Notes under the pieces: generated by a model
What the model was told of the DNA's origin: nothing
Databases searched by the model: none
Seen by the model: only the letters and a program-made list of their open reading frames with translations
Shown: piece by piece, positions 7,089 to 60,562 of the stretch
How positions within the stretch are numbered: position 1 is the first letter of the stretch
Layout of the letters: each line of letters begins with the position of its first letter
Origin: Panopea generosa
Lineage: Eukaryota; Mollusca; Bivalvia; Adapedonta; Hiatellidae
NCBI GenBank assembly: GCA_029582155.1
Contig: CM055899.1
Span: 53,291,353 to 53,355,352 of the forward strand
Direction: 5' to 3'
DNA length: 64,000 bases
Program-made: the position numbers and the translations under genes

Positions 7089-7360
7089 CATATATAACCT
7101 GTAATGTGTTATGAATGGTGCCTCCACCCTCCACCCAATGCAACTGGTACCATGTATAACATGCTATGTGTTGTTGATGGTACCTCCAAGCTCCACCCAC
7201 AGCACATGGAGTCATATATAACCTGTAATGTGTTGTGGATGGTACCTCCACTACCACCCACAGCACCTGGTGTCATATATAACCTTTAATGTGTTGTGGA
7301 TGGTGTCATCGTCTTCCACCAACAGCACCTGGAGCCATATATAACATGTAATGTGTTGTT

Positions 7361-7810
7361 GAAGGTGCCTCCACCCACAACACTTTGTGCCATATATAAC
7401 CTGTAATGTGTTGTGAATGGTGCTTTCACCCACAGCACCTGGTGCCATATATAACCTGTTATGTGTTGTTGCAGGTGCCTCCACCCTCCACCCACAGCAA
7501 CTTGTGCCATATATAACCTGTAATGTGTTGTTGAAGGTGCCTCCACCCACATCACTTTGTGCCATATATAACCTGTAATGTGTTGTGAATGGTGCTTTCA
7601 CCCACAGCACCTGGTGCCATATATAACCTGTTATGTGTTGTTGCAGGTGCCTCCACCCTCCACCCACAGCAACTTGTGCCATATATAACCTGTAATGTGT
7701 TGTTGAAGGTGCCTCCACCCACATCACTTTGTGCCATATATAACCTGTAATGTGTTGTGAATGGTGCTTCCACCCACAGCACCTGGTGCCATATATAACC
7801 TGTTATGTGT
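7361..7810. repeat. 172-bp trimer higher-order repeat in array I left edge
   Basis: A set of three monomers (55+55+62 bp) is repeated at a 172-bp step from 7361 to 7533 to 7705, the last copy being partial. Diagnostic bases are CACTTTGTGCC, GTGCTTTCACC/GTGCTTCCACC, CTGTTATGTG and GTTGCAGGTGCC. A related set lies at about 57730-58000 in array III with the same 172-bp step. Confidence 0.85.
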
Positions 7811-8289
7811 TGTAAATGGTGCATCCACCCACAGCACCTGGTGCCATATATAACCTGTAATGTGTTGTTGAAGGTGCCTCCATCCACAGCACCTTGTGCC
7901 ATATATAACATATAGTGTGTTGTGAATGATGCCTCCACCCACGGCGCCTGGTGCCATATATAACCTGTAATGTGTTGTTCATGGTGCCTCCACCAACGGC
8001 ACCTAGTGCCATATATAGCCTGTAATGTGTTGTGAATGATGCCTCCACCCTCCACCCACAGCACCTTGTGCCAAATATAACCAGTAATGTGTTGTTGATG
8101 GTGCCTCCACCATCCACCCACAGCACCTTGTGCCATATATAACCTGTAATGTGTTGTTGATGGTGCCTCCACCCTCCACCCACAGCACCTTGTGCCATAT
8201 ATAACCTGTAAAATGTTATGGATGGTGCCTCCACCCTCCACCCACAGCACCTTGTGCCATATATAACCTGTAATGTGTTGTGAATGGTG

Positions 8290-10040
8290 CCTCCATCCAC
8301 AGCACCTGGTGCCGTATGTAACCTGCAATGTGTTGTTGAAGGTGCCTCCACCCACAGCACCTTGTGCCATATATCACCTGTAATGTGTTGTGAATGGTGC
8401 CTCCACCCACAGCAGCTGGTGCCATATATAACCTGTTATGTGTTTTGAATGGTGCCTCCACCCACAGCACCTTGTGCCATATATAACCTGTAATGTGTTG
8501 TGAATGGTGCCTCCAACCACAGCACCGTATGCCATATATAACCTGTAATGTGTTGTTGAAGGTGCCTCCACCCACAGCACCTTGTGCCATATATAACCTG
8601 TAATGTGTTGTGAATGGTGCCTCCACCCACAGCACCTGGTGCCATATATAACCTGCAATGTGTTGTTTAAGGTGCCTCCACCCACAGCACCTTGTGCCAT
8701 ATATAACCTGTAATCTGTTGTGAATGGTGCCTCCACCCACAGCACCTGGTGCCATATATAACCTGTAATGTCTTGTGAATGGTGCCTCCACCCACAGCAC
8801 CTTGTGCCATATATAACCTGTAATGTGTTGTTGAAGGTGCCTCCACCCACAACACCTTGTGCCATATATAACCTGTAACGTGTTGTGAATGGTGTCTCCA
8901 CCTACAGCACCTGGTGCCATATATAACCTGTAACATGTTGTTGAAAGTGCCTCCACCCACAGCACCTTTTGCCATATATAACCTGTAATGTGTTGTGAAT
9001 GGTGCCTCCACCCACAGCACCTTGTGCCATATATAACCTGTAATGTGTTGTTGAAGGTGCTTCCACCCACAGCACCTTGTGCCATATATAACCTGTAATG
9101 TGCTGTGAATGGTGCCTCCACCCACAGCACCTTGTGCCATATATAACCTGTAATGTGTTGTTGAAGGTGCCTCCACCCACAGCACCTTGCGCCATATATA
9201 ACCTGTAATGTGTTGTGAATAGTGCCTCCACCCACAGCACCTTGTGCCATATATAACCTGTAATGTGTTGTGAATGGTGCCTCCACCCACAGCACCTTGT
9301 GCCATATATAACCTGTAATATGATGTTGAAGGTGCCTCCACCCACATCACCTTGTGCCATATATAACCTGTAATGTGTTGTTGAATGTGCGTCCACCCAC
9401 AGCACCTTGTGCCATATATAACCTGTAATGTGTTGTGAATGGTGCCTCCACCCACAGCACCTGGTGCCATATATAAACTGCAATGTGTTGTTGAAGGTGC
9501 CTCCACCCACAGCACCTTGTGCCATATATAACCTGTAATGTGTTGTGAATGGTGCCTTCATCGACAGCACCTTGTGCCATATATAACCTGTAATGTGTTG
9601 TGAATGGTGCCTCCACCCACAGCACCTGGTGCCATATATAACCTGTAATGTGTTGTGAATGGTGCCTCCACCCACAGCACCTTGTGCCATATATAACCTG
9701 TAATGTGTTGTGAATGGTGCCTCCACCCACAGCACCTGGTGCCATATATAACCTGTAATGTGTTGTGAATTGTGCCTCCACCCACAGCACCTTGTGCCAT
9801 ATATAACCTGTAATGTGTTGTGAATGGGATCTCCACCCACAGCACCTTGTGCCATATATAACCTGTAATGTGTTGTGAATGGTGCCTCCACCCACAGCAC
9901 CTGGTGCCATATATAACCTGTAATGTGTTGTGAATGGTGCATCCACCAACAGCACCTTGTGCCATATATAACCTGTAATGTGTTGTGAATGGTGCTTACA
10001 CCAACAGCACCTGGTGCCATATATAACCTATAATGTGTTG
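8290..10040. repeat. Homogeneous 55-bp core of array I
   Basis: About 32 consecutive 55-bp monomers without the 7-bp CCTCCAC addition. Two subtypes interleave (GTGAATGGTGCC and GTTGAAGGTGCC), together with CACCTTGTGCC or CACCTGGTGCC endings. Copies differ from the consensus by few bases, unlike the array edges. Confidence 0.85.
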
Positions 10041-10282
10041 TTGATGGTGCCTCCACCCTCCAACCACAGCACCTGATGCCATATATAACCTGTAATGTGT
10101 TGTTGATGGTGAAAACACCCTCCACCCACAGCACCTTGTGCCATATATAACCTATAAAATGTTGTGGATGGTGCCTCGACCCTCCACACACAGCACCTTG
10201 TGAAATATTTAACCTGTAATGTGTTGTGAATGGTGCCCCCACCCACAGCACCTGGTGCCATATATAACCTGTAATGTGTTGT

Positions 10283-10712
10283 GAATGTTGCCTCCACCCA
10301 CAGCACCTTGTGCCATATATAACCTGTAATGTGTTGTGAATGTTGCCTCCACCCTTCACCCACAGCACCTGGTGCCATATATAACCTGCAATGTGTTGTG
10401 AATGGTGCCTCCCCCAACAGCACCTGGTGCCATATATAACCTGTAATGTGTTGTTGAATGTGCTTCCACCCTCCACCCACAGCACCTGGTGCCATATATA
10501 ACCTGTAATGTGTTGTGAATGTTGCCTCCACCCACAGCACCTTGTGCCATATATAACCTGTAATGTGTTGTGAATGTTGCCTCCACCCTTCACCCACAGC
10601 ACCTGGTGCCATATATAACCTGCAATGTGTTGTGAATGGTGCCTCCCCCAACAGCACCTGGTGCAATATATAACCTGTAATGTGTTGTTGAATGTGCTTC
10701 CACCCTCCACCC
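10283..10712. repeat. 234-bp tetramer higher-order repeat in array I right edge
   Basis: Four monomers (55+62+55+62 bp) are duplicated at a 234-bp step (10283 and 10517). Shared marks are GAATGTTGCCTCC, CACCCTTCACCC, GTGCCTCCCCCAACAGC and TTGAATGTGCTTCC. The two copies are nearly identical, so the event is recent relative to the divergence of neighbouring monomers. Confidence 0.85.
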
Positions 10713-10750
10713 ACAGCACATGGTGCTATATATAACCTGTAATGTGTTGT

Positions 10751-11255
10751 GAATGGTTCTTCCACCCTCCACCCACAGCACCTGGTGCCATATATAACCA
10801 GTTATGTGTGCTATATATAACCTGCAATGTGTTGTTGATGGTGCTTCAACCCTCCACCCACAGAAACTGGTGCCATATATAACCTGTAATTTGTTGTGAA
10901 TGGTACCTCCTACCTCCACCCTCAGCACCTTGTGACATATATAACCTATAATGTGTTGTGAATGGTGCTTCGACCCACAGCACCTGGTGCCATATATAAC
11001 CTGTAATGTATTGTTGAATGTGCCTTGACCCTCCACCCACAGCACCTTGTGCGATATATTACCTGTAATGTGTTGTGAATGGTGCATCCATCCACAGCAC
11101 CTGGGGCCATATATAACCTGTAATGTGTTGTTCAAGGTGCCTCCACCCTCCACCTACAGCACCTTGTGCCATATATAACCTGTAATGTATTGTTGATGGT
11201 GCTTCCGACTTCCACCCACAGCACCTTGTGCCATATATAACCTGTAATGTGCTGT
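10751..11255. repeat. Right edge of array I, shared with array II
   Basis: This edge and 37299-37920 have the same order of odd monomers: GAATGGTTCTTCC, a truncated monomer (TTATGTGTGCTATATATAAC), CACAGAAACTGGTGCC, CTGTAATTTGTTG, TGACATATATAACC, TGCGATATAT and GCTTCCGACTTCC. The array II version is longer by about 117 bp, which equals one 55- plus one 62-bp monomer. Array III lacks this edge. Confidence 0.85.
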
Positions 11256-12722
11256 ACATGATGTTCAACTTAACTCAATAAATTAATGTGTATTAATTAA
11301 CTTTCTCTATCACATCAAAGTAAACAAAATACTTCAAACGTTTTATATATAAATCATAACTATCATTTACAGATAAATGTACAACTGTATTGAATGATTG
11401 TGGAGGCAATTTTAGAAAATACTATAGTTTTTATGAAATAAAATAAAATAGAGTACGAGATAGTAACACAATTATACATACAATCATTTGCTTTATCCAG
11501 GTTGTTCCATCTCCAATCTCTTCCATCCTGCCCATATCAATCTCCAATATATAAGATCCTGTCTCATCTCCATATCAAGTACCACCAATGCCATCGTTAA
11601 AATTACATGATAGTTCATCAACATTATCATAATCAATATTATCACAATCATCATCAATATCAATATCATAATCATCATAAATTATCATTAAATATCTCTC
11701 ACGGAAAAAGTCGTATGTTCGAGCCAATTGTGGCCCAAAGACTTTTTTCAGATTGTTGGCTTGTTACTTGCAGAATGACAGTGGTCCTGTGCCGATTTAT
11801 GTGCTTGGAGACTGCCCCCATACATATAAAAGTTGGATACCATATATAACCTGTAATGTGTTGTACATGATGTGCAACTCAACTGACTAAATTACTGTGT
11901 ATTAATTTATTTTCTCTGTCACATCAAAGTTAACAAAATACTTCAAACGTTTTATATATGAATCATAACTATCATTTACAGATAAATGTACAATTGTATT
12001 GAATAATTGTAGAGGCAATTGTAGAAATACTATAGTTTTTAAGAAATAAAATAAAGTATGAGAAAGTTACACAATTATACCTACAATCATTTGCTTTATC
12101 CAGGTTGATCCATCTCCATCTGATCTCCATCTCCAATATCATCCATCCTGTCCATATCCATCTCCTATATATTAGATCCTGTCGCATCTCCATCTCCAGT
12201 ACCACCAATGCCATCGTTAACATTACCCGATAGTTCATCAACATTATCATCATCAATATTATCACAATCATCATCAATTTCATTATCATCATAACTTATC
12301 ATTAAGTATCTCTCACTGGTTAAGTCGTAGGTTCGAGCCAATTGTGGTCCAAAGGAGTTACTTCAGATTGTTGGCTTGTTATTTGAAGAATGACAGTGGT
12401 CTTGTGCTGATTTATGTGCTTGTGGACTGCCCCCATACATAAAAGAGGGATACCATATATAACCAGTAATGTGTTGTAAATGGTGTTGAAATCATCTCAA
12501 TAATTTACTGTGTATTAATTTACATTCTCTATCACAATAAAGTAAACGAAATACTTCAAACGTATTATATATAAATCATGACTATCATTTACAGATAAAT
12601 GTACAATTGTATTGAATGATTGTAGAGGCAATTGTAGAAAATACTATAGTTTTTATGAAATAAAATAAAGTATGAGATAGTAACACAATTATACCTACAT
12701 TCATTTGCATTAACTAGGTTGT

Positions 12723-12924
12723 TCCATCTCCATCTGATCTCCATCTCCTATCTCATCCATCCTGTCCATATCCATCTCCAATATATTAGATCCTGTCTCA
12801 TCTCCATCACAAGTACCACCAATGCCATCGTTAACATTACCCGATATTTCATCAACATTATGATCATCAATATTATCACAATCATCATCAATATCAATAT
12901 CATTATCATCATAAATTATCATTA
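12723..12924. repeat. G-poor CAT/ATC triplet tract of the long unit (example)
   Basis: Low-complexity tract of CATCTCC-type heptamers followed by ATC/TCA triplets and terminated by ATTATCATT. Equivalent tracts occupy the same place in all long units. The tract reads on the minus strand as Asp/Asn-rich (GAT), Met/Ile-rich (ATG) or stop-containing frames, and on the plus strand as Ser/Ile/His-rich frames. This explains why similar 60-120-codon open frames recur on both strands in each unit. The minus Asp-rich frame that starts MARTYDF opens on TTG, not ATG. I do not call it a gene. Confidence 0.85.
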
Positions 12925-12936
12925 AGAATCTCTCAC

Positions 12937-12959
12937 TGGTAAAGTCGTAGGTTCGAGCC
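12937..12959 (+). other. tRNA-promoter-like B-box (and weak A-box-like) motif
   Basis: GGTTCGAGCC contains GTTCGAGCC, a full match to the Pol III B-box pattern GWTCRANNC. Just upstream, CTCACTGGTAAAGTCG loosely resembles the D-arm/A-box part of tRNA-derived sequences, but the gap to the B box is far shorter than in a real tRNA. The T-arm does not pair (GTAGG against CAATT), so this is not a tRNA gene. The motif recurs in most long units (for example 30146-30155), with occasional single-base losses. Function is unproven. A remnant of a tRNA-derived SINE head is possible. Confidence 0.35.
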
Positions 12960-15900
12960 AATTGTGGTCCAAAGGCTTTACTTCAGATTGTTGGCTTGTT
13001 ACTTGCAGAATGACTGGTCCTGTGCCGATTTTTGTTCTTGTGGACTGCCCCCATACATAAAAGTGAGATACCATATATAACCAGTAATGTGTTGTAAATG
13101 GTGTTGAACTCATCGCAATAAATTACTGTGTATTAATTTACTTTCTCTATCATATAAAAGTAAACGAAATACTTCAAACGTTTTATATATCAATCATAAC
13201 TATCATTGACAGGTAAATGTACAATTGTATTGAATGATTGTGGAGGCAATTGTAGAAAATACTATAGATTTTATGAAATGAAATGAAATAAAGTATGAAA
13301 CAGTAACACAATTATACCTACAATCATTTCCTTTATCCAGGATTTCCATCTCCATCTGATCTCCATCTCCAATCTCATCCATCCTGTCCATATCCATCTC
13401 TAATATACTAAATCCTGTCTCATCTCCATCTCCAGTACCACCAATACCATCGTTAACATTACCAGGAATTTCATCAACATTATCATCATCAATGTTATCA
13501 CAATCATCATCAGTATCATTATCATCATTAAATATCACTCACTGGAAAACTCGTAGGTTCGAGCCAATTGTGGTCTAAAGGCTTTACTTCAGATTGTTGG
13601 CTTGTTACTTGCAGAATGACAGTGGTCCTGTGACGATTGATGTGCTTCTAGACTGCCCCTATGCATAAAAGTGGGATACCATATATAACCAGTAATGTGT
13701 TGTAAATGGTGTTGAACTCATATCAATAAATTACTGTGTATTAATTTACTTTCTCTATCACATTAAAGTAAACGAAATACTTCAAACGTTTCATATATAA
13801 ATCATAACTATCATTTACAGATAAATGTACAAATGTATTGAATGACTGTGAAGGCAATTTTAGAAAAAAATATAGTTTTTATGAAATAAAATAAAATAAA
13901 GTATGAGATAGTAACACAATTATACCTACAATCATTTGCTTTATCCAGGTTGTTCCATCTCCATCTGATTTCCATCTCCTATCTCATCCATCCTGTCCTT
14001 ATTCATCTCCAATATATTAGATCCTGTCTCATCTCCATCACCAGTACCACCAATGCCATCGTTAACATTACCCAATATTTCATCAACATTATCATCATCA
14101 ATATTATCACAATCATCATCAATATCAATATCATTATCATCATCAATTATCATTAAGTATCTCTCACTGGTAAAGTCGTAGGTTCGAGCCAATTGTGATC
14201 CAAAGGCTTTACTTCATATTGTTGGCTTGTTACTTGCAGAATGACAGTCGTTCTGTGCTGATTTATATGCTTGGGGACTGCACCCATACATTTGAAAGTT
14301 GGATACCATATATAACCAGTAATGTGTTGTACATGATGTTCAACTCAACTCAATAAATTACTGTGCATTAATTGACTGATTATATCACATCAAAGTAAAG
14401 AAAATACTTCAAACGTTTTATATATAAATCATAACTATCATTTACAGATAAATGTACAATTGTATTGAATGATTGTGGAGGCAATTGTAGAAATACTATA
14501 GTTTTTAAGAAATAAAATAAAATATGAGATAGTAACACAATTATACCTACAATCATTTGCTTTATCCAGGTTGTTCCATCTCCATCTGATCTCCATCTCC
14601 AATCTCATCCATCCTGTCCATATCCATCTCCAATATATTAGATCCTGTCTCATCTCCATCTCCAGTACCATCAATGCCATTGTTAACATTACCCGATATT
14701 TCATCAACATTACCATCATCAATATTATCACAATCACCATTAATATCAATATCATTATCATCATCAATTATCATTGAGTTTCTCTCACTGGTAAAGTCGT
14801 AGGTTCGAGCCACTTGTGGTCCAAAGGCTTTACTTCTGATTATTGGCTTGTTTCTTGCAGAATGACAGTGGTCCAGTGCCGATTTATGTGCTGGTGGCCT
14901 GCCTCCATACATAAAAGTGGGATACTATATATAACCAGTAATGTGTTGTAAATGGTGTTGAACTCATCTCAATAAATTACTGTGTTTTAATTTACTTTCT
15001 CTATCACATTAAAGTAAACAAAATACTTCAAACGTTTTATATATAAATCATAACTATCATTTCCAGATAAATGTACAATTGTATTAAATGATTGTGGAGG
15101 CAATTGTAGAAAATACTATAGTTTCTATGAAATTAAATAAAATAAAGTATGAGATAGTAACACAATTATACCTACAATCATTTGCTTTATCCAGGTTGTT
15201 CCATCATCAATTTCTTCCATCCTGTCCATATCCATCTCCAATATATTAGATCCTGTCTCATCTCCATCTCCAGTACCACCAATGCCATCGTTAACATTAC
15301 CCGATATTTCATCAACATTATCATCATCAATTTTATCACAATCATCATCAATATCAATATCATTATCATCATCAATCATCATTAAGTTTCTCTCACTGGT
15401 AAAGTCTTAGGTTCGAGCCAATTGTGATCCAAAGGCTTTACTTCAGATTATTGGCTTGTTTCTTGCAGAATGACAGTGGTCCTGTGCCGATTTATGTCCT
15501 TGTGGACTGCCCCTATGCATAAAAGTGGGATACCATATATAACCAGTAATGTGTTGTAAATGGTGTTGAAGTCATATTAATAAATTTCTGTGTATTAATT
15601 TACTTTCTCTATCACATTAAAATAAACAAAATACTTCAAACGTTTCATATATAAATCATAACTATCATTTACAGATAAATGTACAATTGCATTGAATGAT
15701 TGTGGAGGCAATTGTCGAAATACTATAGTTTTTATGAAATAAAATAAAGAATGAGATAGTAACACAATTATACCTACAATCATTCGCTATATCCAGGTTG
15801 TTCCATCTCCAACTGATCTCCATCTCCAATCTCATCCATCCTGTCCATCACCATCTCCAATATATTAGATCCTGTCTCATCTCCATCTCCAGTACCACCA

Positions 15901-18726
15901 ATGCCATCGCTAACATTACCCGATATTTCATCAACATTATCATCATCAATATTATCACAACCATCATCAATATCATCATAAATTATCATTAAGTATCTCT
16001 CACTGGTAAAGTCGTAGGTTCGAGCCAATTGTGGTCCAAAGGCTTTACTTCAGATTATTGGCTTGTTACTTGCAGAATGACAGTGGTCCTGTGCCGATTG
16101 ATGTGCTTGTGGACTGCCTCCATACATATAAAAGTTGGGATACCATATATAACCAGTAATGTGTTGTAAATGGTGTTGAGCTCATATCAATAAATTATTG
16201 TGTATTAATTTACTGATTATATCACATCAAAGTAAACAAAATACTTCAAACGTTTTATATAAATCATAACTATCATTTACAGATAAATGTACAATTGTAT
16301 TGAATGATTGTGTACGCAATTGTAGAAATACTATAGTTTTTATGAAATAAAATAAAGTATGAGAAAGTAACACAATTATACCTATAATCATTTGCTTTAT
16401 CCAGGTTGTTCCATCTCCAATTTCTTCCATCCTGACCATATGCATCTCTAATGTATTAGATCCTGTCTCATCTCCATCTCCAGTACCACCAATGCCATCA
16501 TTAACATTACCCGATATTTCATCAACATTATCATCATCAATATTATCACAATCATCATCAATGTCAATATCATCATCAATTAGCATTAAGTATCTCTCAC
16601 TGGTTAAGTCGTAGGTTCGAGCCAATTGTGGTCCAAAGGCTTTACTTCAGATTGTTGGCTTGTTACTTGCAGAATGACAGTGGTCCTGTGCCCATTTATG
16701 TGCTTTGGGACAGCCCCCATACATATAGAAGTTGGATACAATATGTAACCTGTAATGTGTTGTACACGATGTTCAACTCAACTCAATAAATTACTGTGTA
16801 TTAATTTACTTTCTCTATCACATCAAATTAAACAAAATACTTCAAGCGTTTTATATAAAAATCATAACTATCATTTACAGATAAATGTACAATTGTACTG
16901 AATGATTGTAGAGGCAATTGTCGAAACACTGTAGTTTTTATGAAATAAAATAAAGAATGAGATAGTAACACAATTATACCTACAACCATTTGCTATATGC
17001 AGGTTGTTCCATCTCCAAATCTCCATCTCCAATCTCATCCATCCTGTCCATATCCATCTCCAATATATTAGATCCTGTCTCATCTCCATCTCCAGTACCA
17101 CCAATGCCATCGCTAACATTACCCGATATTTCATCAACATTATCATCATCAATATTATCACAACTATCATCAATATTATCATAAATTATCATTAAGTATC
17201 TCTCACTGGTAAAATCGTAGGTTCGAGCCAATTGTGGTCCAAATGCTTTACTTCAGATTGTTGGCTTGTTACTTGCAGAATGACAGTGGTCCTGTGCCGA
17301 TTTATGTGCTTGGGGACTGCCCCCATACATATAAAAGTTGGATACAATATATAACCTGCAATGTGTTGTACATGATGTTCAACTCAACTCAATAAAATAC
17401 TGTGTATTAATTTACTGATTATATCACATCAAAGTAAACAAAATACTTCAAACGTTTTATATAAATCATAACTATCATTTACAGATAAATGTACAATTGT
17501 ATTGAATGATTGTGGACGCAATTGTAGAAATACTATAGTTTTTATGAAATAAAATAAAGTATGAGATAGTAACACAATTATACCTATAATCATTTGCTTT
17601 ATCCAGGTTGTTCCATCTCCATCTGATCTCTATCTCCAATATCATCCATTCTGTCCATATCCATCTCCAATATATTAGATCCTGTCTCATCTCCATCTCA
17701 AATACCACCAATGCCATCGTTAACATTACCCGATATTTCATCAACATAATAATCTTCAATATTACCAAAATCATCATCAATATCAATATCATTATCATCA
17801 TAAATTATCATTAAGTATCTCTTACTGGCAAAGTCGTAGGTTCGAGCCAATTGTGGTCCAAAGGCTTTACTTCAGATTATTGACTTGTTTCTTGCAGAAT
17901 GACAGTGGTCCTGTGCCGATTGATGTGCTTCTGGACTGCCCCCATACATAAAAGTGGGATACCATCTATAACCAGTAATGTGTTGTAAATGGTGTTGAAC
18001 TCATCTGAATAAATTACTGTGTATTAATTTAATTTCTCTATCACATTAAAGAAAACGAAATACTTGAAATGTTTTATATATAAATCATAACTATCATTTA
18101 CAGATAAATGTACAATTGTATTGAATGATTGTGGAGGCAATAGTATAAAATACTATCGTTTTTATGAAATAAAATAAAATAAAGTATGAGATAGTAACAC
18201 AATTATACCTACAATCATTTGCTTTATCCAGGTTGTTGCATCTCCATCTGATCTCCATCTCCAATATCAGCCATTCTGTCCATATTCATCTCCAATATAT
18301 TAGATCCTGTCTCATCTCCATCTCCAGTACCACCAATGCCATCGCTAACATTACCCAATATTTCATCAACATTATCATCATCAATATTATCACAACCATC
18401 ATCAATATCATCATCAATTATCATTAAGTATCTCTCACTGGTAAAATCGTAGGTTCGAGCCAATTGTGGTCCAAATGCTTTACTTCAGATTGTTGGCTTG
18501 TTACTTGCAGAATGACAGCAGTCCTGTGCTGATTAATGTCCTTGGGGACTGCTCACATACATATAAAAGTTGGATACCATATATAACCAGTAATGTGTTG
18601 TACATGATGTTCAACTCAACTCAATAAATTACTGTGTATTAATTTACTTTCTCTATCACATCAAAGTAAACAAAATACTTCAAACGTTTTATATATAAAT
18701 CATAACTATCATTTACAGATAAATGT

Positions 18727-21154: not shown

Positions 21155-22289
21155 TACAATTGTATTAATGATTGTGGAGGCAATTGTAGAAAATACTATA
21201 GTTTTTATGAAATTAAATAAAATAAAGTATGAGATAGTAACACAATTATACCTACAATCATTTGCTTTATCCAGGTTGTTCCATCTCCAATTTCTTCCAT
21301 CCTGTCCATATCCATCTCCAATATATTAGATCCTGTCTCATCTCCATCTCCAGTACCACAAATGCCATCGTTAACATTACCCGATATTTCATCAACATTA
21401 TCATCATCAATATTATCACAATCATCATCAATATCAATATCATTATCATCATAAATTATCATTAAGTATCTCTCACTGGTAAAGTCGTAAGTTTGGGCCA
21501 ATTGTGGTCCAAATGCTTTACTTCAGATTGTTGGCTTGTTTCTTGCAGAATGACAGTGGTACTGTGCCGATTTATGTGCTTGTGGACTGCCCCCATACAT
21601 AAAAGTGGGATACCATATATAACCAGTAATGTGTTGTAAATGGTGTTGAACTCACCTCAATAAATTACTGTTTATTAATTTACTTTCTCTATCACATTAA
21701 AGTAAACGAAATACTTCAAACGTTTCATATATAAATCATAACTATCATTTACAGATAAATGTACAAATGTATTGAATGACTGTGGAGGCAATTTTAGAAA
21801 AAAATATAGATTTTATGAAATAAAATAAAGTATGAGATAGTAACACAATTATACCTACAATCATTTGCTTTATCCAGGTTGTTTCATCTCCATCTGATTT
21901 CCATCTCCAATCTCATCCATCCTGTCCATATTCATCTCCAATATATTAGATCCTGTCTCATCTCCATCACCAGTACCACCAATGCCATCGTTAACATTAC
22001 CCGATATTTCATCAACATTATCATCATCAATATTATCACAATCATCAATAATATCAATATCATTATCATCATCAATTATCATTAAATATCTCTCACTGAT
22101 AAAGTCGTAGGTTCGAGCCAATTGTGGCCCAACGGCTTTACTTCAGAATGTTGGCTTGTTACTTGCAGAATGACAGCAGTCCTGTGCTGATTCATGTGCT
22201 GGGGGACTGCTCACATACATATAAAAAGTCGGATACCATATATAACCTGTAATGTGTTGTACATGATGTTCAACTCAACTCAATAAATT

Positions 22290-25200: not shown

Positions 25201-25496
25201 TCTCTCACTGGTAAAGTTGTAGGTTCGAGCCAATTGTGGTCCAACGGTTTTACTTCAGATTGTTGGCTTGTTACTTGCAAAATGACAGTGGTCCTGTGCC
25301 GATTTATGTGCTTGTGGACTGCCCCCATACATATAAAAGTTGGATACCATATATAACCTGTAATGTGTTGTACATGATGTTCAACTCAACTCAATAAATT
25401 ACTGTATATTAATTTACTTTCTCTATCACATCAAAGTAAACAAAATACTTCAAACATTTTATATATAAATCATAACTATCATTTACAGATACATGT
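22290..25496. repeat. ~1.35-kb block repeated 1862 bp apart
   Basis: Blocks at about 22290-23634 and 24152-25496 are nearly identical at an offset of 1861-1862 bp. They share TATCATTTAGTATCTTCATTG, GAAAGACAGTGG, CTATTATAGTTTTTTTG, CCTTTCTTATC and CATCATTTTCATTACCCG. A third copy lies at about 52020-53353, offset about 27857-27866 bp from the second, and that match continues to about 53950. Confidence 0.85.
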
Positions 25497-36200: not shown

Positions 36201-36369
36201 ACCTGTAATGTGTTGTTGAATGTGCTTCCACCCTCCACCCACAGCACCTGGTGCCATATATAACCTGTTATGTGTTGTGAATGGTTCTTCCACCCTCCAC
36301 CCACAGCACCTGGTGCCATATATACCCTGTAATGTGTTGTGAATGGTGCCTCCCCCAACAACACCTGGT

Positions 36370-37270: not shown

Positions 37271-37298
37271 GTGCCATATATAACCTGTAATGTGTTGT

Positions 37299-44160: not shown

Positions 44161-44174
44161 ATAACTATCGTTTA

Positions 44175-48600: not shown

Positions 48601-51600
48601 TCCATCTCCAATATATTAGATCCTCTCTCATTTCCTTCTCCAGTACCACCAATGCCATCGTTAACATTACCCGATATTTCATCAACATTACCATCATCAA
48701 CATTACCACAATCATCATCAACATCAATATCATTATCATCATAAATTATCATTAAGTATCTCTCACTGGTAAAGTTGTAGGTTCGAGCCAATTGTGGTCC
48801 AAATGCTTTACTTCAGACTGTTGGCTTGTTTATTGCAGAATGACAGTGGTCTTGTGCCGATTGATGTGCTCGTGGACTGCCTCCATACATAAAAGTGGGA
48901 TACAATATATAACCAGTAATGTGTTGTAAATGGTGTTGAACTCATCTCAATAAATTACTGTGTATTAATCTACTTTCTCTATCACATTAAAGTAAACGAA
49001 ATACTTCAAACGTTTTATATATCAATCATAACTATCATTTACAGATAAATGTACAAATGAAGTGAATGATTGTGGAGGCAATTGTGGAAAATACTTTAGT
49101 TTTTATGAAATAAAATCAAGTATGAGATAGTAACACAATTATACCTACAATTATTTGCTATATCCAGGTTGTTTCATCTCCATCTAATCTCCATGTACAA
49201 TCTCATCCATCCTGGTCATATCCATCTCCAATATATTAAATCCTGTCTCATCTGCTTCTCCAGTACCACCAATGCCATCGTTAATATTACCCGATATTTC
49301 ATCAACATTATCATCATCAATATTATCACAATCATCATCATTATCAATTATCATTAAGTATCTCTCACTGGTAAAGTCGTAGGTTCGAGCCAATTGTGGT
49401 CCAAAGACTTTACTTCAGATTGTTGGCTTGTTACTTGCAGAATGACAGTGGTCCTGTGCTGATTTATGTGCTTGGGGACTGCCCCCATACATATAAAAGT
49501 TGGATACCATATATTACCAGTAATGTGTTGTACATGATGTTCAACTCAACTCAATAAATTATTGTGTGTTAATTGACTTATTTTATCACATCAAAGTAAA
49601 CAAAATACTTCAAACGTTTTATATAAATCATAACTATCATTTACAGATAAATGTACAATTGTATTGAATGACTGTGGACGCAATTGTAGAAATACTATTA
49701 TAGTTTTTATGAAATAAAAAAAAGTATGAGATAGTAACAAAATTATACTTACAATAATTTGCTTTATCCAGGTTGTTCCATCTCCATCTGATCTCCATCT
49801 CCAATATCATCCATTCTGTCCATATCCATCTCCAATATATTAGATCCTGTCTCATCTCCATCTCAAGTACCATCAATACATCATTTTCATTACCCGATAT
49901 TTCATCAACATTATCATCATCAATATTATCACAATCATCAATAATATCAATATCATTATCATCATCAATTATCATTAAGTATCTCTCACTGATAAAGTCG
50001 TAGGTTCGAGCCAATTGTGGCCCAAAGGCTTTACTTCAGATTGTTGGCTTGTTACTTGCAGAATGACAGCAGTCCTGTGCTGATTCATGTGCTTGGGGAC
50101 TGCTCACATACATATAAAAGTTGGATACCATATATAACCTGTAATGTGTTGTACATGATGTTCAACTCAACTCAATAAATTACTGTGCATTAATTAACTT
50201 TTTCAATCACATCAAAGTAAACAAAATACTTCAAACGTTTTATATATAAATCATAACTATCATTTACAGATAAATGTACAATTGTATTGAATGATTGTGG
50301 AGGCAATTTTAGAAAATACTAAAGTTTTTATGAAATAAAATAAAATAAAGTATGAGATAGTAACACAATTATATCTACAATCATTTGCTTTATCCAGGTT
50401 GTTTCATCTCCATCTGATTTCCATCTCCAAACTCATCCATCCTGTCCATATCCATCTCCAATATATTAGATCCTGTCTCATCTCCTTCTCCAGTACCACC
50501 AATGCCATCGTTAACATTACCCGATATTTCATCAACATTATCATCATCAATATTATCACAATCATCATCAATATCAATATCATAATCATCATCAATTATC
50601 ATTTAGTATCTCTCACTGATAAAGTCGTAGGTTCGAGCCAATTGTGGTCCAAAGGCTTTACTTCAGATTGTTGGCTTGTTACTTGCAGAATGACAGTGGT
50701 CCTGTGCTGATTTATGTGCTTGGGGATTGCCCCCATACATATAAAAGTTGGATACCATATATAACCTGTAATGTGTTGTACATGATGTGCAACTCAACTG
50801 ATTAAATTACTGTGAATTAATTTACTTTCTCTATCACATCAAAGTAAACAAAATACTTCAAACGTTTTATATATGAATCACAACTATCATTTACAGATAA
50901 ATGTACAATTGTATTGAATGATTGTGGAGGCAATTGTAGAAATACTATAGTTTTTATGAATTAAAATAAAGTATGAGATAGTTACACAATTATACCTACA
51001 ATCATTTGCTTTATCAAGGTTGTTCCATCTCCATCTGATCTCCATCTCCAATCTCATCCATCCTGTCCATATCCATCTCCAATATATTAGATCCTATCTC
51101 ACCTCCATCTCCAGTACCACCAATGCCATCGTTAACATTACCCGATATTTCATCAACATTATCATCATCAATGTTATCACAATCATCATCAATATCAATA
51201 TCATCATAAATTATCATGAAGTATCTGTCACTGGTAAAGTCGTAGGTTCGAGCCAATTGTGGTCCAAAGGCTTTACTTCAGATTGTTCGCTTGTTACTTG
51301 CAGAATGACAGTGGTCCTGTGCTAATGTATGTCCTTGGTTACTGCCTCCATACATATAAAGGTTGGATACCATATATAACATGTAATGTGTTGTAAATGA
51401 TGTTCAACTCAACTCAATAAATTACTGTGTATTAATTTACTTTCTCTATCACATTAAAGTAAACAAAATACTTCAAACGTTTTAATATATATAAATCATA
51501 ACTATCATTTACAGATAAATTTACAACTGTATTCAATGATTGTGGAGTCCATCCTATATATACTATAGTTTTTAAGAAATAACATAAAGTATGAGATAGT

Positions 51601-52019
51601 AACACAATTATATCTACAATCATTTGCTTTATCCAGGTTGTTCCATCTCCATCTGATATCCATTTCCAATCTCATCCATCCTTTCCATATCCATCTCCAA
51701 TATATTAGATCCTGTCTCATCTCCATCTCCAGTACCACCAATGCCATCGTTAACATTACCCGATACTTCCTCAACATTATCATCATCAATATCAATATCA
51801 TCATCAATTATCATTAAGTATCTCTCACTGGTAAAGTCGTAGGTTCGAGCCAATTGTGGTCCAAATGCTTTACTTCAGATTGTTGGCTTGTTACTTGCAG
51901 AATGACAGTGGTCCTGTGCCGATTTATGTGCTTGTGGACTGCTCACATACATAAAAGTGCGATACCATATATAACCTGTAATGTGTTGGAAATGGTGTTG
52001 AACTCATCTCAATAAATTA

Positions 52020-53950
52020 CTGTGTATTAATTTACTTTCTCTATCACATTAAAGAAAACAAAATACTTCAAACGTTTTATATATAAATCATAACTATCAT
52101 TTACAGATCAATGTACAATTGTATTGAATGATTGTGGAGGTAACTGTAGAAAATACTATAGTTTTTATGAATAAAAATAAAATAAAGTACGAGATAGTAA
52201 CACAATTATACCTACAATCATTTGCTTTATCCAGGTTGTTCCATCTCCATCAGATCTCCATCTCCAATCTCATCCATCCTTTCCATATCCATCTCCAATA
52301 TATTAGATCCTGTCTCATCTCCTTCTCCAGTACCACCAATACCATCGTTGACATTACCCGATATTTCATCAACATTATCATCATCAATATTATTACAAAC
52401 AATATCAATATCATAATCATCATAAATTATCATTTAGTATCTTCATTGATAAAATAGTAGGTTCGAGCCAATTGTGGTCCAAAGGCTTTACTTCAGATTG
52501 TTGGCTTGTTACTTGCAGAATGACAGTGGTCCTGTGCCGATTTATGTGCTTGGGGACTGCCTCCATACATACAAAAGTTGGATACCATATATAACATGCA
52601 ATGTGTTGTACATGATGTTCAACTCAACTCAATAAATTATTGGGTGTTAATTGACTTATTTTATCACATCAAAGTAAACAAAATACTTCAACCGTTTTAT
52701 ATAAATCATAACTATCATTTACAGATAAATGTACAATTGTATTGAATGACTGTGGACGCAATTGTAGAAATACTATAATAGTTTTTATGAAATAAAATAA
52801 AGTATGAGATAGTAACACAATTATACCTACAATCATTTGCTTTATTCAGGTTGTTCCATCTCCATCTGATCTCCAATATCATCCATTCTGTCCATATCCA
52901 TCTCCAATATATTATATCCTTTCTTATCTCCATCTCAAGTACCACCAATGCCATCATTTTCATTACCCGATATTTCATCAACATTATCATCATCAATATT
53001 ATCACATTCATCATCAATATCAATATCATTATCATCATTATGAATTATCATTAAGTATCTCTCACTGGTAAAGTTGTAGGTTCGAGCCAATTGTGGTCCA
53101 ACGGTTTTTCTTCAGATTGTTGGCTTGTTACTTGCAGAATGACAGTGGTCCTGTGCTGATTTATGTGCTTGTGGACTGCCCCCATACATATAAAAGTTGG
53201 ATACCATATATAACCTGTAATGTGTTGTACATGATGTTCAACTCAACTCAATAAATTACTGTATATTAATTTACTTTCTCTATCACATCAAAGTAAACAA
53301 AATACTTCAAACGTTTTATATATAAATCATAACTATCATTTACAGATACATGTACAATTGTATTGAATGATTGTGGAGGCAATTTTAGAAAATACTATAG
53401 TTTTTATGAAATAAAATAAAGTATGAGATAGTAACACAATTATACCTACAATCATTTGCTTTATCCAGGTTGTTCCATCTCCAATCTCTTCCATCCTGTC
53501 CATATCCATCTCCAATATATTAGATCCTGTCTCATCTCCATCTCCAGTACCACCAATGTCATCGTTAACATTACCCGATATTTCATCAACATTATCATCA
53601 ATATTATCACAATCATCAATAATATCAATATCATTATCATCATCAATTATCATTAAATATCTCTCACTGGTAAAGTCGTAGGTTCGAGCCAATTGTGGCC
53701 CAAAGGCTTTACTTCAGATTGTTGGCTTGTTACTTGCAGAATGACAGTGGTCCTGTGCCGATTTATGTGCATTTGGACTGCCTCCATACATAAAAATAGG
53801 ATACCATATATAACCAGTAATGTGTTGGAAATGGTGTTGAACTCATCTCAATAAATTACAGTGTATTAATTTACTTTCTCTATCACATTAAAGAAAACAA
53901 AATACTTCAAACGTTTTATATATAAATCAAAACTATCATTTACAGATCAA
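52020..53950. repeat. Distant copy of the 24152-26100 block
   Basis: Unit starts 52115, 52733, 53354 and about 53955 match 24249, 24875, 25497 and 26100 at a nearly constant offset of 27855-27866 bp, with the same rare variants, including GTGCATTTGGACTGCCTCC and GATCAATGTATAAATTG. It differs by small changes such as a shortened triplet tract near 52390. Confidence 0.85.
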
Positions 53951-55177
53951 TGTATAAATTGTATTGAATGATTGTGGAGGTAACTGTAGAAAATACTATA
54001 GTTTTTATGAAATAAAATAAAATAAAGTATGAGAAAGTCACACAATTATACTTACAATCATTTGCTTTATCCAGGTTGTTTCATCTCCATCTGATCTCCA
54101 TCTCCAATCTCATCCATCCTGTCCATATCCATCTCCAATATATTAGATCCTGTTTCATCTCCATCTCCAGTACCACCAATACCATCGTTAACATTACCCG
54201 ATATTTCACCAACATTATCATCAATATTATCACAATCATCAATAATATCAATATCATTACCATCATCAATTATCATTAAGTATCTCTCACTGGTAAAGTC
54301 GTAGGTTCGAGCCAATTGTGTTCCAAAGGCTTTACTTCAGATTGTTGGCTTGTTACTTGCAGAATGACAGTGGTCCTGTGCCAACTTGTGGCTTGTGGAC
54401 TGCCCACATACATATAAAAGTTGGATACCATATATAACCTGTAATGTGTTGTACATGACGTGCAACTCAACTCAATAAATTACTGTGTATTAATTTACTT
54501 TCTCTATCACATCAAAGTAAACAAAATACTTTAAACGTTTTTCTATATAAATCATAACTATCATTTACAGATAAATGTACAATTGTATTGAATGATTGTG
54601 GACGCAACTGTAGAAAATACTATAGTTTTTATGAAATAAAATAAAATAAAGTATGAAATAGTAACACAATTATACCTACAATCATTTGCTTTATCCAGGT
54701 TGTTCCATCTCCAATCTCTTCCATCCTGTCCATATCCATCTCCAATATATTAGATCCTGTCTCATCTCCATCACCAGTACCACCAATGCCATCGTTAACA
54801 TTACCCGATATTTCATCAACATTATCATCATCAACATTATCACAATCATCAATAATATCAATATCATTATCATCATCAATTATCATTAAATATCTCTCAC
54901 TGATAAAGTCGTAGGTTCGAGCCAATTGTGGCCCAAAGGCTTTACTTCAGATTGTTGGCTTGTTACTTGGAGAATGACAGTGGTCCTGTGCCGATTTATG
55001 TGCTGGTGGGCTGCCTCCATACATAAAAGTGGGATACTATATATAACCAGTAATGTGTTGTAAATGGTGTTGAACTCATCTCAATAAATTACTGTGTATT
55101 AATTTACTTTTTCTATCACATTAAAGTAAACGAAATACTTGAAACGTTTTATATATAAATCATAACTATCGTTTACA

Positions 55178-56640
55178 GATAAATGTACAATTGTAATAAA
55201 TGATTGTGGAGGCAATTGTAGAAAATACTATAGTTTTTATGAAATAAAATAAAATAAAGTATGAGTTAGTAACACAATTATACCTACAATCATTTGCTTT
55301 ATCAAGGTTATTCCATCTCCAATCTCTTCCATCCTGTCCATATCCATCTCCAATATATTAGATCCTGTCTCATCTCCATCACTAGTACCACCAATGCCAT
55401 CGTTAACATTACCCGATATTTCATCAACATTATCATCATCAATATTATCACAATCATCATCAATATCAATATCATTTTCATCATAAACTATCATTAAGTA
55501 TCTCTCACTGGTAAAGTTGTAGGTTCGAGCCAGTTGTGGTCCAAAGGCTTTACTTCAGATTATGGGCTTGTTTACTTGCAGAATGACAGTGGTCCTAGTG
55601 CCTAATTTATGTGCTCGTGGACTGCCTCCATACATAAAAGTGGGATACTATATATAACCTGTAATGTGTTGTAAATGGTGTTGAACTCATCTCAATAAAT
55701 TACTGTGTATTAATTTACTTTCTCTATCACATTAAAGTAAACGAAATACTTAAAACGTTTTATATATGAATCATAACTATCATTTACAGATAAATGTACA
55801 ATTGTATTGAATGATTGTGGAGGCAATTGTAGAAAATACTATAGTTTTTATGAAATAAAATAAAATAAAGTATGAGATAGTAACACAATTATACCTACAA
55901 TCATTTGCTTTATCCAGGTTGTTCCATCTCCAATTTCTTCCATCCTGTCCATATCCATCTCCAATATATTAGATCCTGTCTCATCTCCATCACCAGTACC
56001 ACCAATGCCATCATTAACATTACCCGATATTTCATCAACATTATCATCATCAATATTATCACAATCATCAATAATATCAATATCATTATCATCATCAATT
56101 ATCATTAAATATCTCTCACTGGTAAAGTCGTAGGTTCGAGCCAATTGTGGCCCAAAGGCTTTACTTCAGATTGTTGGCTAATTACTTGCAGAATGACAGT
56201 GGTCCTGTGCCGATTTATGTGCTGGTGGGCAGCCTCCATACATAAAAGTGGGATACCATATATAACCAGTAATGTGTTGTAAATGGTGTTGAACTCATCT
56301 CAATAAATTACTGTGTATTAATTTACTTTTTCTATCACATCAAAGTAAACGAAATACTTAAAACGTTTTATATATAAATCATAACTTTCGTTTACAGATA
56401 AATGTACACTTGTATTAAATGATTGTGGAGGCAATTGTAGAAAATACTATAGTTTTTATGAAACAAAATAAAGTATGAGTAAGTAACACAATTAAACCTA
56501 CAATCATTTGCTTTATCAAGGTTATTCCATCTCCAATCTCTTCCATCCTGTCCATATCCATCTCCAATATATTAGATACTGTCTCATCTCCATCTCCAGT
56601 ACCACCAATGCCATCGTTAACATTACCCGATATTTCATCA
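55178..56640. repeat. Block shared with 44175-45640
   Basis: Partner of the preceding block. In its third unit the triplet tract changes to the CATTACCATGATCAACATTA type, close to 48690, and the following CTCGTGGACTGCCTCC also matches 48870, so this region is a mosaic of two donors. Confidence 0.8.
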
Positions 56641-57458
56641 ACATTACCATGATCAACATTACCACAATCATCATCAACATCAATATCATTATCATCATAA
56701 ATTATCATTAATTATCTCTCACTGGTAAAGTTGTAGGTTCGAGCCAATTGTGGTCCAAATGCTTTACTTCAGATTGTTCGCTTGTTACTTGCAGAATGAC
56801 AGTGGTCTTGTGCCGATTGATGTGCTCGTGGACTGCCTCCATACATAAAAGTGGGATACCGTATATAACCAGTAATGTGTTGTAAATGGTGTTGAACTCA
56901 TCTGAATAAATTACTGTGTATTAATTTACTTTCTCTATCACATCAAAGTAAACGAAATACTTCAAACGTTTTATATATAAATCATAACTATCATTTACAG
57001 ATACATGTACAATTGTATTGAATGATTGTGGAGGCAATTGTAGAAAATACTATAGTTTTTATGAAATTAAATAAAATAAAGTATGAGATAGTAACACAAT
57101 TATACCTACAATCATTTGCTTTATCCAGGTTGTTCCATCTCCAATTTCTTCCATCCTGTCCATATCCATCTCCAATATATAAGATCCTGTCTCATCTCCA
57201 TCTCCAGTACCACCAATGCCATCGTTAACATTACACCGATATTTCATCAACATTATCATCATCAATATTATCACAATCATCATTAATATCATCATAAATT
57301 ATCATTAAGTATCTCTCACTGATAAAATCGTAGGTTCGAGCCAATTGTGGTCCAAATGCTTTACTTGAGATTGTTGGCTTGTTATTTGCAGAATGACAGT
57401 GGTCCTGTGCCGATTTATGTGCTTGGGGACTGCCCCCATACATATAAAAGTTGGATAC

Positions 57459-60400
57459 CATATATAACCTGTAATGTGTTATGAATGGTGCCTCCACCCT
57501 CCACCCACAGCAACTGGTACCATGTATAACATGCTATGTGTTGTTGATGGTGCCTCCAACCTCCACCCACAGCACCTGAAGCCATATATAACCTGTAATG
57601 TGTTGTGGATGGTGCCTCCACTACCACCCACAGCACCTGTTGTCATATATAACCTGTAATGTGTTGTGATGGTGTCATTGTCTTCCACCAACAGCACCTG
57701 GAGCCATATATAACCTGTAATGTGTTGTTGTAGGTGCCTCCACCCACAGCACTTTGTGCCATATATAACCTGTAATGTGTCGTGAATGGTGCTTCCACCT
57801 ACAGCACCTGGCGCCATATATAACCTGTTATGTGTTGTTGCAGGCGACTCCTGCCTCCACCCACAGCAACTTGTGCCATATATAACCTGTAATGTGTTGT
57901 TGAAGGTGCCTCCACCCACATCACTTTGTGCCATATATAACCTGTAATGTGTTGTGAATGGTGCTTCCACCCACAGCACCTGGTGCCATATATAACCTGT
58001 TATGTGTTGATCAAGGTGCCTCCACCCTCCACCCACAGCACCTGGTGCCATATATAACCTGTTATGTGTTGTAAATGGTGCCTCCACCCACAGCACCTTG
58101 TGCCATATATCACCTGTAACTGTGTTGTGAATGGTGCCTCCACCCACAGCACCTGGTGCCATATATAACCAGTAATGTGTTGTGAATGGTGCCTCCACCC
58201 ACAGCACCTTGTGCCATATATAACCTGTAATGTGTTGTGAATGGTGCCTCCACCCACAGCACCTTGTGCCATATATAACCTGTAATGTGTTGTTGAAGGT
58301 GCCTCCACCCACAGCACCTTGTGCCATATATAACCTGTAATGTGTTGTGAATGGTGCCTCCACCCACAGCACCTGGTGCCATATATAACCTGCAATGTGT
58401 TGTTGAAGGTGCCTCCACCCACAGCACCTTGTGCCATATAAAACCTGTAATATGTTGTGAATGGTGCCTCCACCCACAGCACATGGTGCCATATATAACC
58501 TGCAATGTGTTGTTGAAGGTGCCTCCACCCACAGCACCTTGTGCCATATAAAACCTGTAATATGTTGTGAATGGTGCCTCCACCCACAGCACCTGGTGAC
58601 ATATATAACCTGTAATGTGTTGTGAATGGTGCCTCCACCCACAGCACCTTGTGCCATATATAACCTGTAATGTGTTGTTGAAGGTGCCTCCACCCACAAC
58701 ACCTTGTGCCATATATAACCTGTAATGTGTTGTTGAAGGTGTTTCCACCCACAGCACCTTGTGCCATATATAACCTGTAATGTGTTGTGAATGGTGCCTC
58801 CACCCACAGCACCTTGTGCCATATATAACCTGTAATGTGTTGTTGAAGGTGCCTCCACACACAGCACCTTGTGCCATTTATAACCTGTAATGTGTTGTGA
58901 ATGGTGCCTCCACCCACAGCATCTTGTGCCATATATAACCTGTAATGTGTTGTTGAAGGTGCCTCCACCCACAGCACCTTGTGCCATATATAACCTGTAA
59001 TGTGTTGTTGAAGGTGCCTCCACCCACAGCACCTTGTGCCATATATAACCTGTAATGTGTTGTGAATGGTGCCTCCACCCACAGCACCTTGTGCCATATA
59101 TAACCTGTAATGTGTTGTTGAAGGTGCCTCCACCCACAGAACCTTGTGCCATATATAACCTGTAATGTGTTGTGAATAGTGCCTCCACCCACAGCACCTT
59201 GTGCCATCTATAACCTGTAATGTGTTGTGAATGGTGCCTCCACCCACAGCACCTTGTGCCATATATAACCTGTAATGTGATGTTGAAGGTGCCTCCACCC
59301 ACAGCACCTTGTGCCATATATAACCTGTAATGTGTTGTTGAAGGTGCCTCCACCCACACCACCTTGTGCCATATATAACCTGTAATGTGTTGTTGAAGGT
59401 GCCTGAACCCACAGCACCTTGTGGCCTATATAACCTGTAATGTGTTGTGAATGGTGCCTCTACCCACAGCAGCTGGTGCCATATATAACCTGCAATGTGT
59501 TGTTGAAGGTACCTCCACCCACAGCACCTTGTGCCATATATAACCTGTAATGTGTTGTGAATGGTGCCTCCACCCACAGCACCTTGTGCCATATCTAACC
59601 TGTAATGTGTTGTGAATGGTGCCTCCACCCACAGCACCTGGTGCCATATATAACCTGTAATGTGTTGTGAATGGTGCCTCCACCCACAGCACCTGGTGCC
59701 ATATATAACCTGGAATGTGTTGTGAATGGTGCCTCCACCCACAGCACATTCTGCCATATATAACCTGTAATGTGTTGTGAATGGTGCATCCACCTACAGC
59801 ACCTTGTGCCATATATAACCTGTAATGTGTTGTGAATGGTGCCTCCACCCACAGCACCTTGTGCCATATATAACCTGTAATGTGTTGTGAATGGTGCCTC
59901 CACCCACAGCACCTGGTACCATATATAAGCTGTAATGTGTTGTTGAAGGTGCCTCCACCCACAGCACCTGGTGCCATATATAACCTGTAATGTGTTGTGA
60001 AAGGTGCCGCCACACACAGCACCTTGAGCCATTTATAACCTGTAATGTGTTGTTGATGGTGCCTCCACCCTCCACCCACAGCACCTTGTGCCATATATAA
60101 CCTGTAAAATATTGTGGATGGTGCATCCACCCTCCACCCACAGCACCTTGTGCCATATATAACCTATAATGTGTTGATGAAGGTGCTCCACCCACAGCAA
60201 CTTGTGCCATATATAACCTGTAATGTGTTGTTGAAGGTGCCTGAACCCACAGCACCTGGTGCCATATATAACCTGTAATGTGTTGTGAATGGTGCCTCCA
60301 CCCACAGCACCTGATGCCATATATAACCTGCAATGTGTTGTTGAAGGTGCCTCCACCCACAGCACCTTGTGCCATATATAACCTGTAATGTGTTGTGAAT

Positions 60401-60562
60401 GGTGCCTCCACCCACAGCACCTGGTGCCATATATAACCTGTAATGTGTTGTGAATGGTGCCTCCACCCACAGCACCTGGTGCCATATATAACCTGTAATG
60501 TGTTGTGAATGGTGCCTCTACCCACAGCACCTTGTGCCATATATAACCTGTAATGTGTTGTG
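57459..60562. repeat. 55-bp satellite array III
   Basis: The smallest short array, about 55 copies. The left edge (57459-58040) has 62-bp and other odd-length monomers matching the left edges of arrays I and II. From about 58080 to 60050 it is almost pure 55-bp copies. A pair of 62-bp copies lies near 60060-60150, followed by 55-bp copies up to the exit into the long unit. The variant-rich right edge shared by arrays I and II is missing here. Minus-strand frames of 627 and 597 codons overlap in different frames. Confidence 0.96.

What the first reader, a model, noticed from the sequence alone, without database searches (positions are those of the whole stretch)
7089..60562. A 55-bp satellite grown three times inside, and in register with, a ~608-bp satellite
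All three short arrays enter and leave the long unit at the same place. The entry is GGATACCATATATAACC and the exit is TAATGTG followed by TGTACATGATGTTCAAC or a one- or two-base variant. About 25 bp (CATATATAACCTGTAATGTG and a few more) are common to unit and monomer. Removing each array leaves a host unit of about 574, 610 or 599 bp. The monomer thus looks like a local expansion nucleated at one sub-site of the long unit, which was then either copied with its host unit or renewed at the same site. A two-tier nested satellite with a fixed nucleation point is unusual and may be undescribed in this organism.
Basis: seen in the sequence. Interest (0 to 1): 0.75.

Follow-up and report, generated by a model that had tools for sequence, protein, structure and literature searches.

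The report
Two nested satellites from one SINE
A long repeated DNA block contains shorter repeat blocks at one spot, most likely because both kinds of repeat descend from the tail of the same small jumping element and because one insertion was later copied several times.

Summary
Three 55-bp arrays (window 7088-11263, 32665-37928, 57458-60569) sit in the ~608-bp satellite with the same entry and exit; removing them leaves units of 609, 608 and 610 bp. Seven more embedded arrays read on the same contig share the joints.

The ten host units form one clade (10 of 10 inside, 0 of 135 other units), so the shared site is mostly shared descent. The 55-bp family also stands alone on C3 and C6, with no long unit in the stretches read, so it probably did not start in this unit.

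The shared tract comes from a dispersed tRNA-derived SINE (16,701 tail-motif sites). The long unit holds a 5'-truncated copy (SINE 44-248), and the monomer is probably its last ~56 bp. SINE-like tails repeat at 55 bp at 13 loci on 11 contigs. Both tiers thus seem to come from one SINE: a new variant of known SINE-derived satellites.

The parts
1..64000 (+). ~608-bp satellite (88 unit starts in the window by pattern); consensus 620 columns, mean identity 91% over 2000 random pairs of 135 complete units of C6:53.2-53.4 Mb
7088..11263 (+). embedded 55/62-bp array 1 (4176 bp); degenerate at both ends, more homogeneous in the middle
32665..37928 (+). embedded 55/62-bp array 2 (5264 bp); degenerate at both ends
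57458..60569 (+). embedded 55/62-bp array 3 (3112 bp); belongs to the class without the degenerate right end
7083..7120 (+). entry joint of array 1 (same at 32660-32697 and 57453-57490)
11231..11263 (+). last partial monomer and exit joint of array 1 (same at 37896-37928 and 60537-60569)
20250..20450 (+). example of the SINE-derived part of an ordinary long unit (SINE positions 44-248, E 3e-16; spans the array entry site at 20394)

Best explanation
Both satellites descend from one dispersed tRNA-derived SINE. Inferred course: (1) a 5'-truncated SINE copy plus about 400 bp of other DNA became the ~608-bp unit and spread in three domains of contig C6; (2) separately, the last ~56 bp of SINEs of this family became tandem with a 55-bp period at many places, and one lineage (with the altered half CCTCCACCCACAGCACCTGGTG and a 62-bp variant) grew into arrays on C3, C6 and C16; (3) an array of that lineage joined one 608-bp unit by exchange inside the 33-bp SINE-tail tract that the two share, which adds the array without loss of host bases; (4) that array-bearing unit was copied to at least ten places, and the arrays then changed length by internal unequal exchange. 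Shown: the joints, the common descent of the ten host units, the SINE homology of the long unit, stand-alone arrays, other joints at the domain edge. Inferred: that homologous exchange made the founding joint, the SINE origin of the altered half of the monomer, and the order of steps. No function is proposed; repeat turnover explains the whole.
For: Joints identical in 10 of 10 embedded arrays read. A genome-wide scan for the entry joint (up to one mismatch) gave 14 sites, control 0: these ten, one edge-zone site on C6, and three on C3. Host flanks: left 0.981 mean identity among hosts (45 pairs), 0.925 host-other (440 pairs, which include an eleventh, edge-zone row), 0.909 other-other (300 pairs); right 0.975, 0.922, 0.913. 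Tree of joined flanks: 10 of 10 hosts in one clade, 0 of 135 others, SH-aLRT 96, one change. Array right ends fall in two classes of 4 and 6, 0.96-0.99 alike within a class. Listed long units match SINE 44-248 (or nearly) with E 1e-18 to 3e-16. SINE tail motif: 16,701 sites, control 4. Monomer half collinear with the SINE: p 0.0007-0.016 for six array consensuses, and 16 of 41,986 genomic 23-mers reach the score of the best. SINE-tail trimer search: 13 loci on 11 contigs with 140 bp or more aligned at 55-bp period (40 of 240 candidates scored). Stand-alone arrays: no long unit in 5 of 5 loci read.
Against: The unanchored test of the monomer-specific half against the SINE is weak (p 0.04-0.39), so SINE origin of that half rests on its position. 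The stand-alone arrays read have no SINE body in the stretch fetched. The separate left-flank tree gives the host clade almost no support (0.05), and the right-flank clade (0.764) holds one edge-zone row as well. Array left ends are 0.84-1.00 alike, and those of L035 (0.84-0.90) are no closer than random interior pieces (mean 0.89, 95th percentile 0.96). High identity reaches only the host unit and its left neighbour (5 arrays, 10 pairs), so no long repeated block carries the arrays. Three C3 sites resemble the entry joint and could not be read. Arrays at C6:63.90-63.91, 63.925 and 60.969-60.977 Mb were not read to their ends.
Confidence: 0.72

Rival explanations
1. Local nucleation: one 608-bp unit expanded its own SINE-tail segment into 55-bp repeats, and this unit was copied.
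For: SINE-like tails do become tandem at 55 bp elsewhere, so the site may be prone to it; one founder is all that the tree needs. The host's own 23 bp before the tract resemble the monomer half weakly in two of four comparisons (p 0.02-0.03).
Against: In the other two comparisons they do not (p 0.09-0.11), and all four scores are 0 or below, against 4 to 11 for the dispersed SINE. Arrays on C3 and elsewhere on C6 carry that half; five stand-alone arrays have no long unit in the stretch read.
Confidence: 0.13
2. Array first: the 608-bp unit was born from the flanks of a 55-bp array, and array-free units arose by collapse of the array to one 33-bp remnant.
For: Large 55-bp arrays lie at the left edge of the 53-Mb domain and just beyond the listed units of the 60.9-Mb domain.
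Against: Array hosts are one clade, closer to the other units (0.925) than these are to each other (0.909). The unit runs through the SINE from near the B box to its 3' end, which explains the 33 bp without any array.
Confidence: 0.08
3. Independent arrays were inserted repeatedly at the same site by homology.
For: The tract is present in the units generally, and edge-zone array 53270839 enters at the same site in a host that is not close to the ten (0.86-0.89), so a second event at this site is likely.
Against: Ten hosts form one clade with one change, and array right ends are shared between copies.
Confidence: 0.05
4. Assembly artefact.
For: Tandem DNA is hard to assemble; no reads were available here.
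Against: Ten copies of different lengths (1856-5264 bp) on both strands share the same joints.
Confidence: 0.02

Closest known systems
SINE-derived satellites (sSats) of squamate reptiles (PMC10702118; abstract and passages seen)
   Same: Tandem repeats made of portions of tRNA-related SINEs, arising from several SINE families; the authors say that many SINE copies make a first duplication by unequal homologous recombination more likely.
   Different: Here two tandem repeats of different unit length seem to come from one SINE and one is nested in the other. The same paper calls earlier SINE-satellite examples inconclusive.
PcH-sat of the limpet Patella caerulea, from a Nin-SINE (PMC11121367; abstract and passages seen)
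   Same: A satellite whose 179-bp unit holds a 118-bp SINE segment, lacking box A and box B.
   Different: One tier only; another SINE; here the match starts after the A box and a B-box-like GGTTCGAGCC remains.
Retrotransposon-derived arrays in Lathyrus sativus, e.g. FabTR-58 in Ogre (PMC7004042; passages seen)
   Same: Short tandem arrays repeated at intervals inside a larger repeated sequence, with expansion of arrays first present inside a mobile element.
   Different: LTR retrotransposon, not SINE; the outer tier is the element itself.
Minisatellites from Alu and mouse B1 SINEs (reviews PMC9659126 and PMC6947457; passages and tables seen)
   Same: Tandem growth of a short SINE segment.
   Different: From what I saw, other SINEs and no second satellite from the same SINE around them.

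Membership tests
tRNA-derived SINE (for the dispersed element) | pol III A box and B box in the head | tested here: met
   TGGCCGAGTGG and GGTTCGAGTCC in 3 of 4 copies; the fourth has the B box alone. Box consensus recalled. Rfam and ARAGORN find no tRNA in the two C6 copies.
tRNA-derived SINE (for the dispersed element) | many dispersed copies of similar length ending in a simple tail | tested here: met
   16,701 tail-motif sites; the 40 listed matches span 227-254 bp on 16 contigs; poly(A) after the end in 2 of 4 copies
tRNA-derived SINE (for the dispersed element) | target site duplications | not tested
   little flank was fetched and I did not look
SINE-derived satellite (608-bp unit) | tandem unit homologous to a dispersed SINE | tested here: met
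   E 1e-18 to 3e-16 for the listed units over about SINE 44-248
SINE-derived satellite (55-bp monomer) | whole monomer homologous to a SINE part | tested here: inconclusive
   33-bp half clear; 22-bp half p 0.0007-0.016 when placed, p 0.04-0.39 when not; SINE-like tails with 55-bp period exist
Higher-order repeat (arrays carried by one long repeated block) | collinear runs of near-identical units between copies | tested here: not met
   in C6:53.2-53.4 Mb no run of 3 or more units at 97.5% or better; 32 of 9,045 unit pairs reach it. Not tested for the minus-strand copies, two of which have identical flanks

The most novel reading that the evidence does not exclude
The 3' tail of this SINE is a genome-wide seed for tandem DNA: the same ~55-bp segment has become tandem many times independently, and because the element also seeds larger satellites, later exchange between tail-derived arrays and SINE-bearing satellites builds nested, two-tier satellites at a site fixed by homology.
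Probability: 0.35. Interest if true: 0.62.

Novelty: new variant of a known kind. Interest (0 to 1): 0.42.

Why it matters
It gives a worked case in which a dispersed element seems to supply both the outer and the inner unit of a nested satellite, and explains a 'fixed nucleation point' by ordinary homology and descent. With 16,701 SINE-tail sites and 13 loci already seen with repeated tails, one genome offers a natural series from a single tail to a long array, so the first steps of satellite birth can be counted instead of guessed.

Tried and rejected
A second monomer relic in the long unit (around consensus 355-375, alike by eye): no support, p 0.78-0.80. Rfam on the window: no match at gathering scores; ARAGORN: none. 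A long higher-order repeat as carrier of the arrays: not found. A trimer period inside the arrays (165 bp in TRF): lags 1-7 differ by about 0.02 in identity or less, so no strong inner higher-order repeat. The long unit outside C6: 17 of 17 listed matches and 40 of 40 in each lie on C6, but those lists are capped (1 of 273, 40 of 662 and 40 of 739 candidates scored). Two 400-base pieces meant to show the ends of the array at C6:63.90 Mb lay inside it, so its joints are unknown.
Full report
Setting. The window is C6:53291353-53355352 of a 1.474-Gb assembly in 39 contigs.

Observation. The window is a ~608-bp satellite (88 unit starts by pattern; mean identity 91% over 2000 random pairs of the 135 complete units of 53.2-53.4 Mb; intervals outside 540-700 bp were left out there). 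Three 55-bp arrays with a 62-bp variant monomer lie in it. In arrays 1 and 2 the best eighths match the monomer consensus at 0.95 and 0.93 and the outer ones at 0.82-0.88; array 3 starts at 0.84 and is clean to its right end. Degenerate ends with a homogeneous centre are what unequal exchange gives (established knowledge).

More arrays. In 53.2-53.4 Mb two further embedded arrays lie to the right of the window (53368574, 53387724), and left of it is a 27-kb edge zone made mostly of 55-bp arrays. Three embedded arrays on the minus strand at 53.019-53.051 Mb and two at 60.918-60.932 Mb were also read. All ten embedded arrays read have the same joints. Further arrays on C6 (60.969-60.977, 63.90-63.91, 63.925 Mb) were not read to their ends; two pieces of the one at 63.90 Mb lay inside it. 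A 38-base entry-joint pattern with up to one mismatch has 14 places in the genome, control 0: the ten, 53270832 in the edge zone, and three on C3. The C3 sequences are one base from the array form and also one base from a plain-unit form, and could not be read.

Other joints. In the edge zone the array at 53270839 enters at the usual site but leaves in the TCA-rich stretch at about unit position 401 (placed at 71% identity over 75 bp). Those at 53274362 and 53280536 enter at position 365 with the same joint, probably one event copied; the former leaves at about 401, the latter at the usual exit (53291232). Two further arrays (53263835, 53265448) start in DNA that does not match the long unit.

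Descent. Left and right 300-bp flanks of the ten hosts are 0.981 and 0.975 identical on average (45 pairs each), against 0.925 and 0.922 to other units (440 pairs each, with one edge-zone row among the hosts) and 0.909 and 0.913 among others (300 pairs each). On a tree of joined flanks the ten are one clade with none of 135 other units in it, SH-aLRT 96, one change of state (the two edge-zone rows, known on one side only, were left out). Trees of one side alone give the same grouping but with support 0.05 (left) and 0.764 (right, with the edge-zone row 53291232 inside). Array right ends fall in a class of four that keep the degenerate end and a class of six without it, 0.96-0.99 alike within a class and 0.86-0.88 between; left ends are 0.84-1.00 alike, L035 being no closer (0.84-0.90) than random interior pieces (mean 0.89, 95th percentile 0.96). 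For the five arrays of 53.2-53.4 Mb, the unit left of the host is 0.95-0.98 alike between copies and most further units fall to background; no collinear run of three units at 97.5% was found. So one array-bearing unit was copied, with little around it or long enough ago for the surroundings to be scrambled.

The inner family is not local. A 35-base monomer pattern has 1,581 places (control 0); the listed ones lie on C3, C6 and C16. Stand-alone arrays were read at C3:50.907, 58.360 and 70.858 Mb and C6:64.010 and 64.035 Mb. The long unit without its shared tract finds nothing in these five or in the two inner pieces from C6:63.90 Mb (control locus 8 hits); only 2-6 kb was read at each of the five, so a more distant long unit is not excluded. 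Embedded monomers are 0.89-0.91 alike among themselves, 0.88-0.90 to two edge-zone arrays, 0.85-0.87 to a third, 0.86-0.87 to C6:64.010, 0.83-0.87 to two C3 arrays, 0.79-0.80 to C3:70.858 and 0.75-0.77 to C6:64.035 (699 monomers of 50-64 bp, others left out, only 7 from C3:58.360). Their consensuses share the half CCTCCACCCACAGCACCTGGTG or a near variant, which the long unit lacks.

The common source. Outside the satellite, C6:53224733-53224985 matches long-unit columns 469-620 and 1-56. It belongs to a dispersed element: 6,661 first-look candidates, the 40 listed on 16 contigs. Four copies aligned show an element of about 245 bp with an A box (3 of 4) and a B box (4 of 4), a tail ..CTCCACCAGTAAAACTGGATATGCCATATATAACCTGAAATGTGTTGAAAATGGCGTTAAACCCCATTC (C7 and C16 copies) and, in two, poly(A). 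I read it as a tRNA-derived SINE; the likeness of its head to tRNA-Leu is recalled, and Rfam and ARAGORN do not call a tRNA in the two C6 copies. Single long units match about SINE 44-248 with E 1e-18 to 3e-16 among those listed. The unit has lost the A box region and keeps a B-box-like GGTTCGAGCC.

The monomer and the SINE. The 33-bp half is plainly SINE tail. The other half, placed just before it as in the SINE, scores above shuffles (p 0.0007-0.016 for six array consensuses; 16 of 41,986 genomic 23-mers reach the best score), but without that placing the test is weak (p 0.04-0.39). Support comes from SINE tails themselves: 16,701 places hold the motif CTCCACCAGTAAAACTGG with up to one mismatch (control 4), and among the roughly 100 listed, pairs lie exactly 55 apart at C1:19917658 and C1:21184620 and 110 apart at C1:31773100; one other close pair is 96 apart. 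A typed three-unit tail finds 13 loci on 11 contigs with 140 bp or more aligned, at 76-86% identity (40 of 240 candidates scored). So SINE-like tails are tandem at 55 bp in many places. Whether these are independent events is not shown.

Mechanism. Both joints of the founding insert fall inside the tract that unit and monomer share through the SINE, and no host base is lost. That is the expected product of homologous exchange between a tail-derived array, linear or circular, and the SINE tail in one long unit (inference). Copying of the host unit then gave the present set.

Compared with print. SINE-derived satellites are known in squamates (PMC10702118, abstract and passages) and in a limpet (PMC11121367, abstract and passages); Alu- and B1-derived minisatellites are listed in reviews PMC9659126 and PMC6947457 (passages and tables); arrays set at intervals in a larger repeated element are described in PMC7004042 (passages). 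In the listings (titles and starts of abstracts, save the papers named) I saw no report of two nested satellites from one SINE; subscription papers are mostly not in that library.

Verdict. Observation confirmed, interpretation partly supported; a new variant of a known kind, of moderate interest.

Noticed in passing
C6:53017501-53052000 (L031-L033): Inverted copies of array-bearing units; two arrays about 15,287 bp apart have identical 300-bp flanks on both sides, so a recent duplication lies here.
   Followed up: partly
L017:3539-5446 and L046 (C6:64034501-64037500): The left edge of the C6:53.26 domain and the C6:64.035 locus are about 81-82% alike over flanks and 53-bp arrays together: an old segmental copy along C6.
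   Followed up: partly
C3:58386270, 58390567, 58481495: Three C3 places one base from the array entry joint, near C3 monomer arrays: C3 may hold a related long unit.
   Followed up: no
long unit, e.g. window 12126-12198 and 12235-12264: Long units carry a ~31-bp repeat in about 2.3 copies and a TCA-rich stretch, which may explain part of their length variation.
   Followed up: no
C19:5283255-5284322, C23:876816-877178, C10:67819465-67819888: Runs of SINE-tail-like 55-bp repeats on other contigs, 75-85% identical to the typed tail trimer; the C19 run is broken by a gap without listed match.
   Followed up: no
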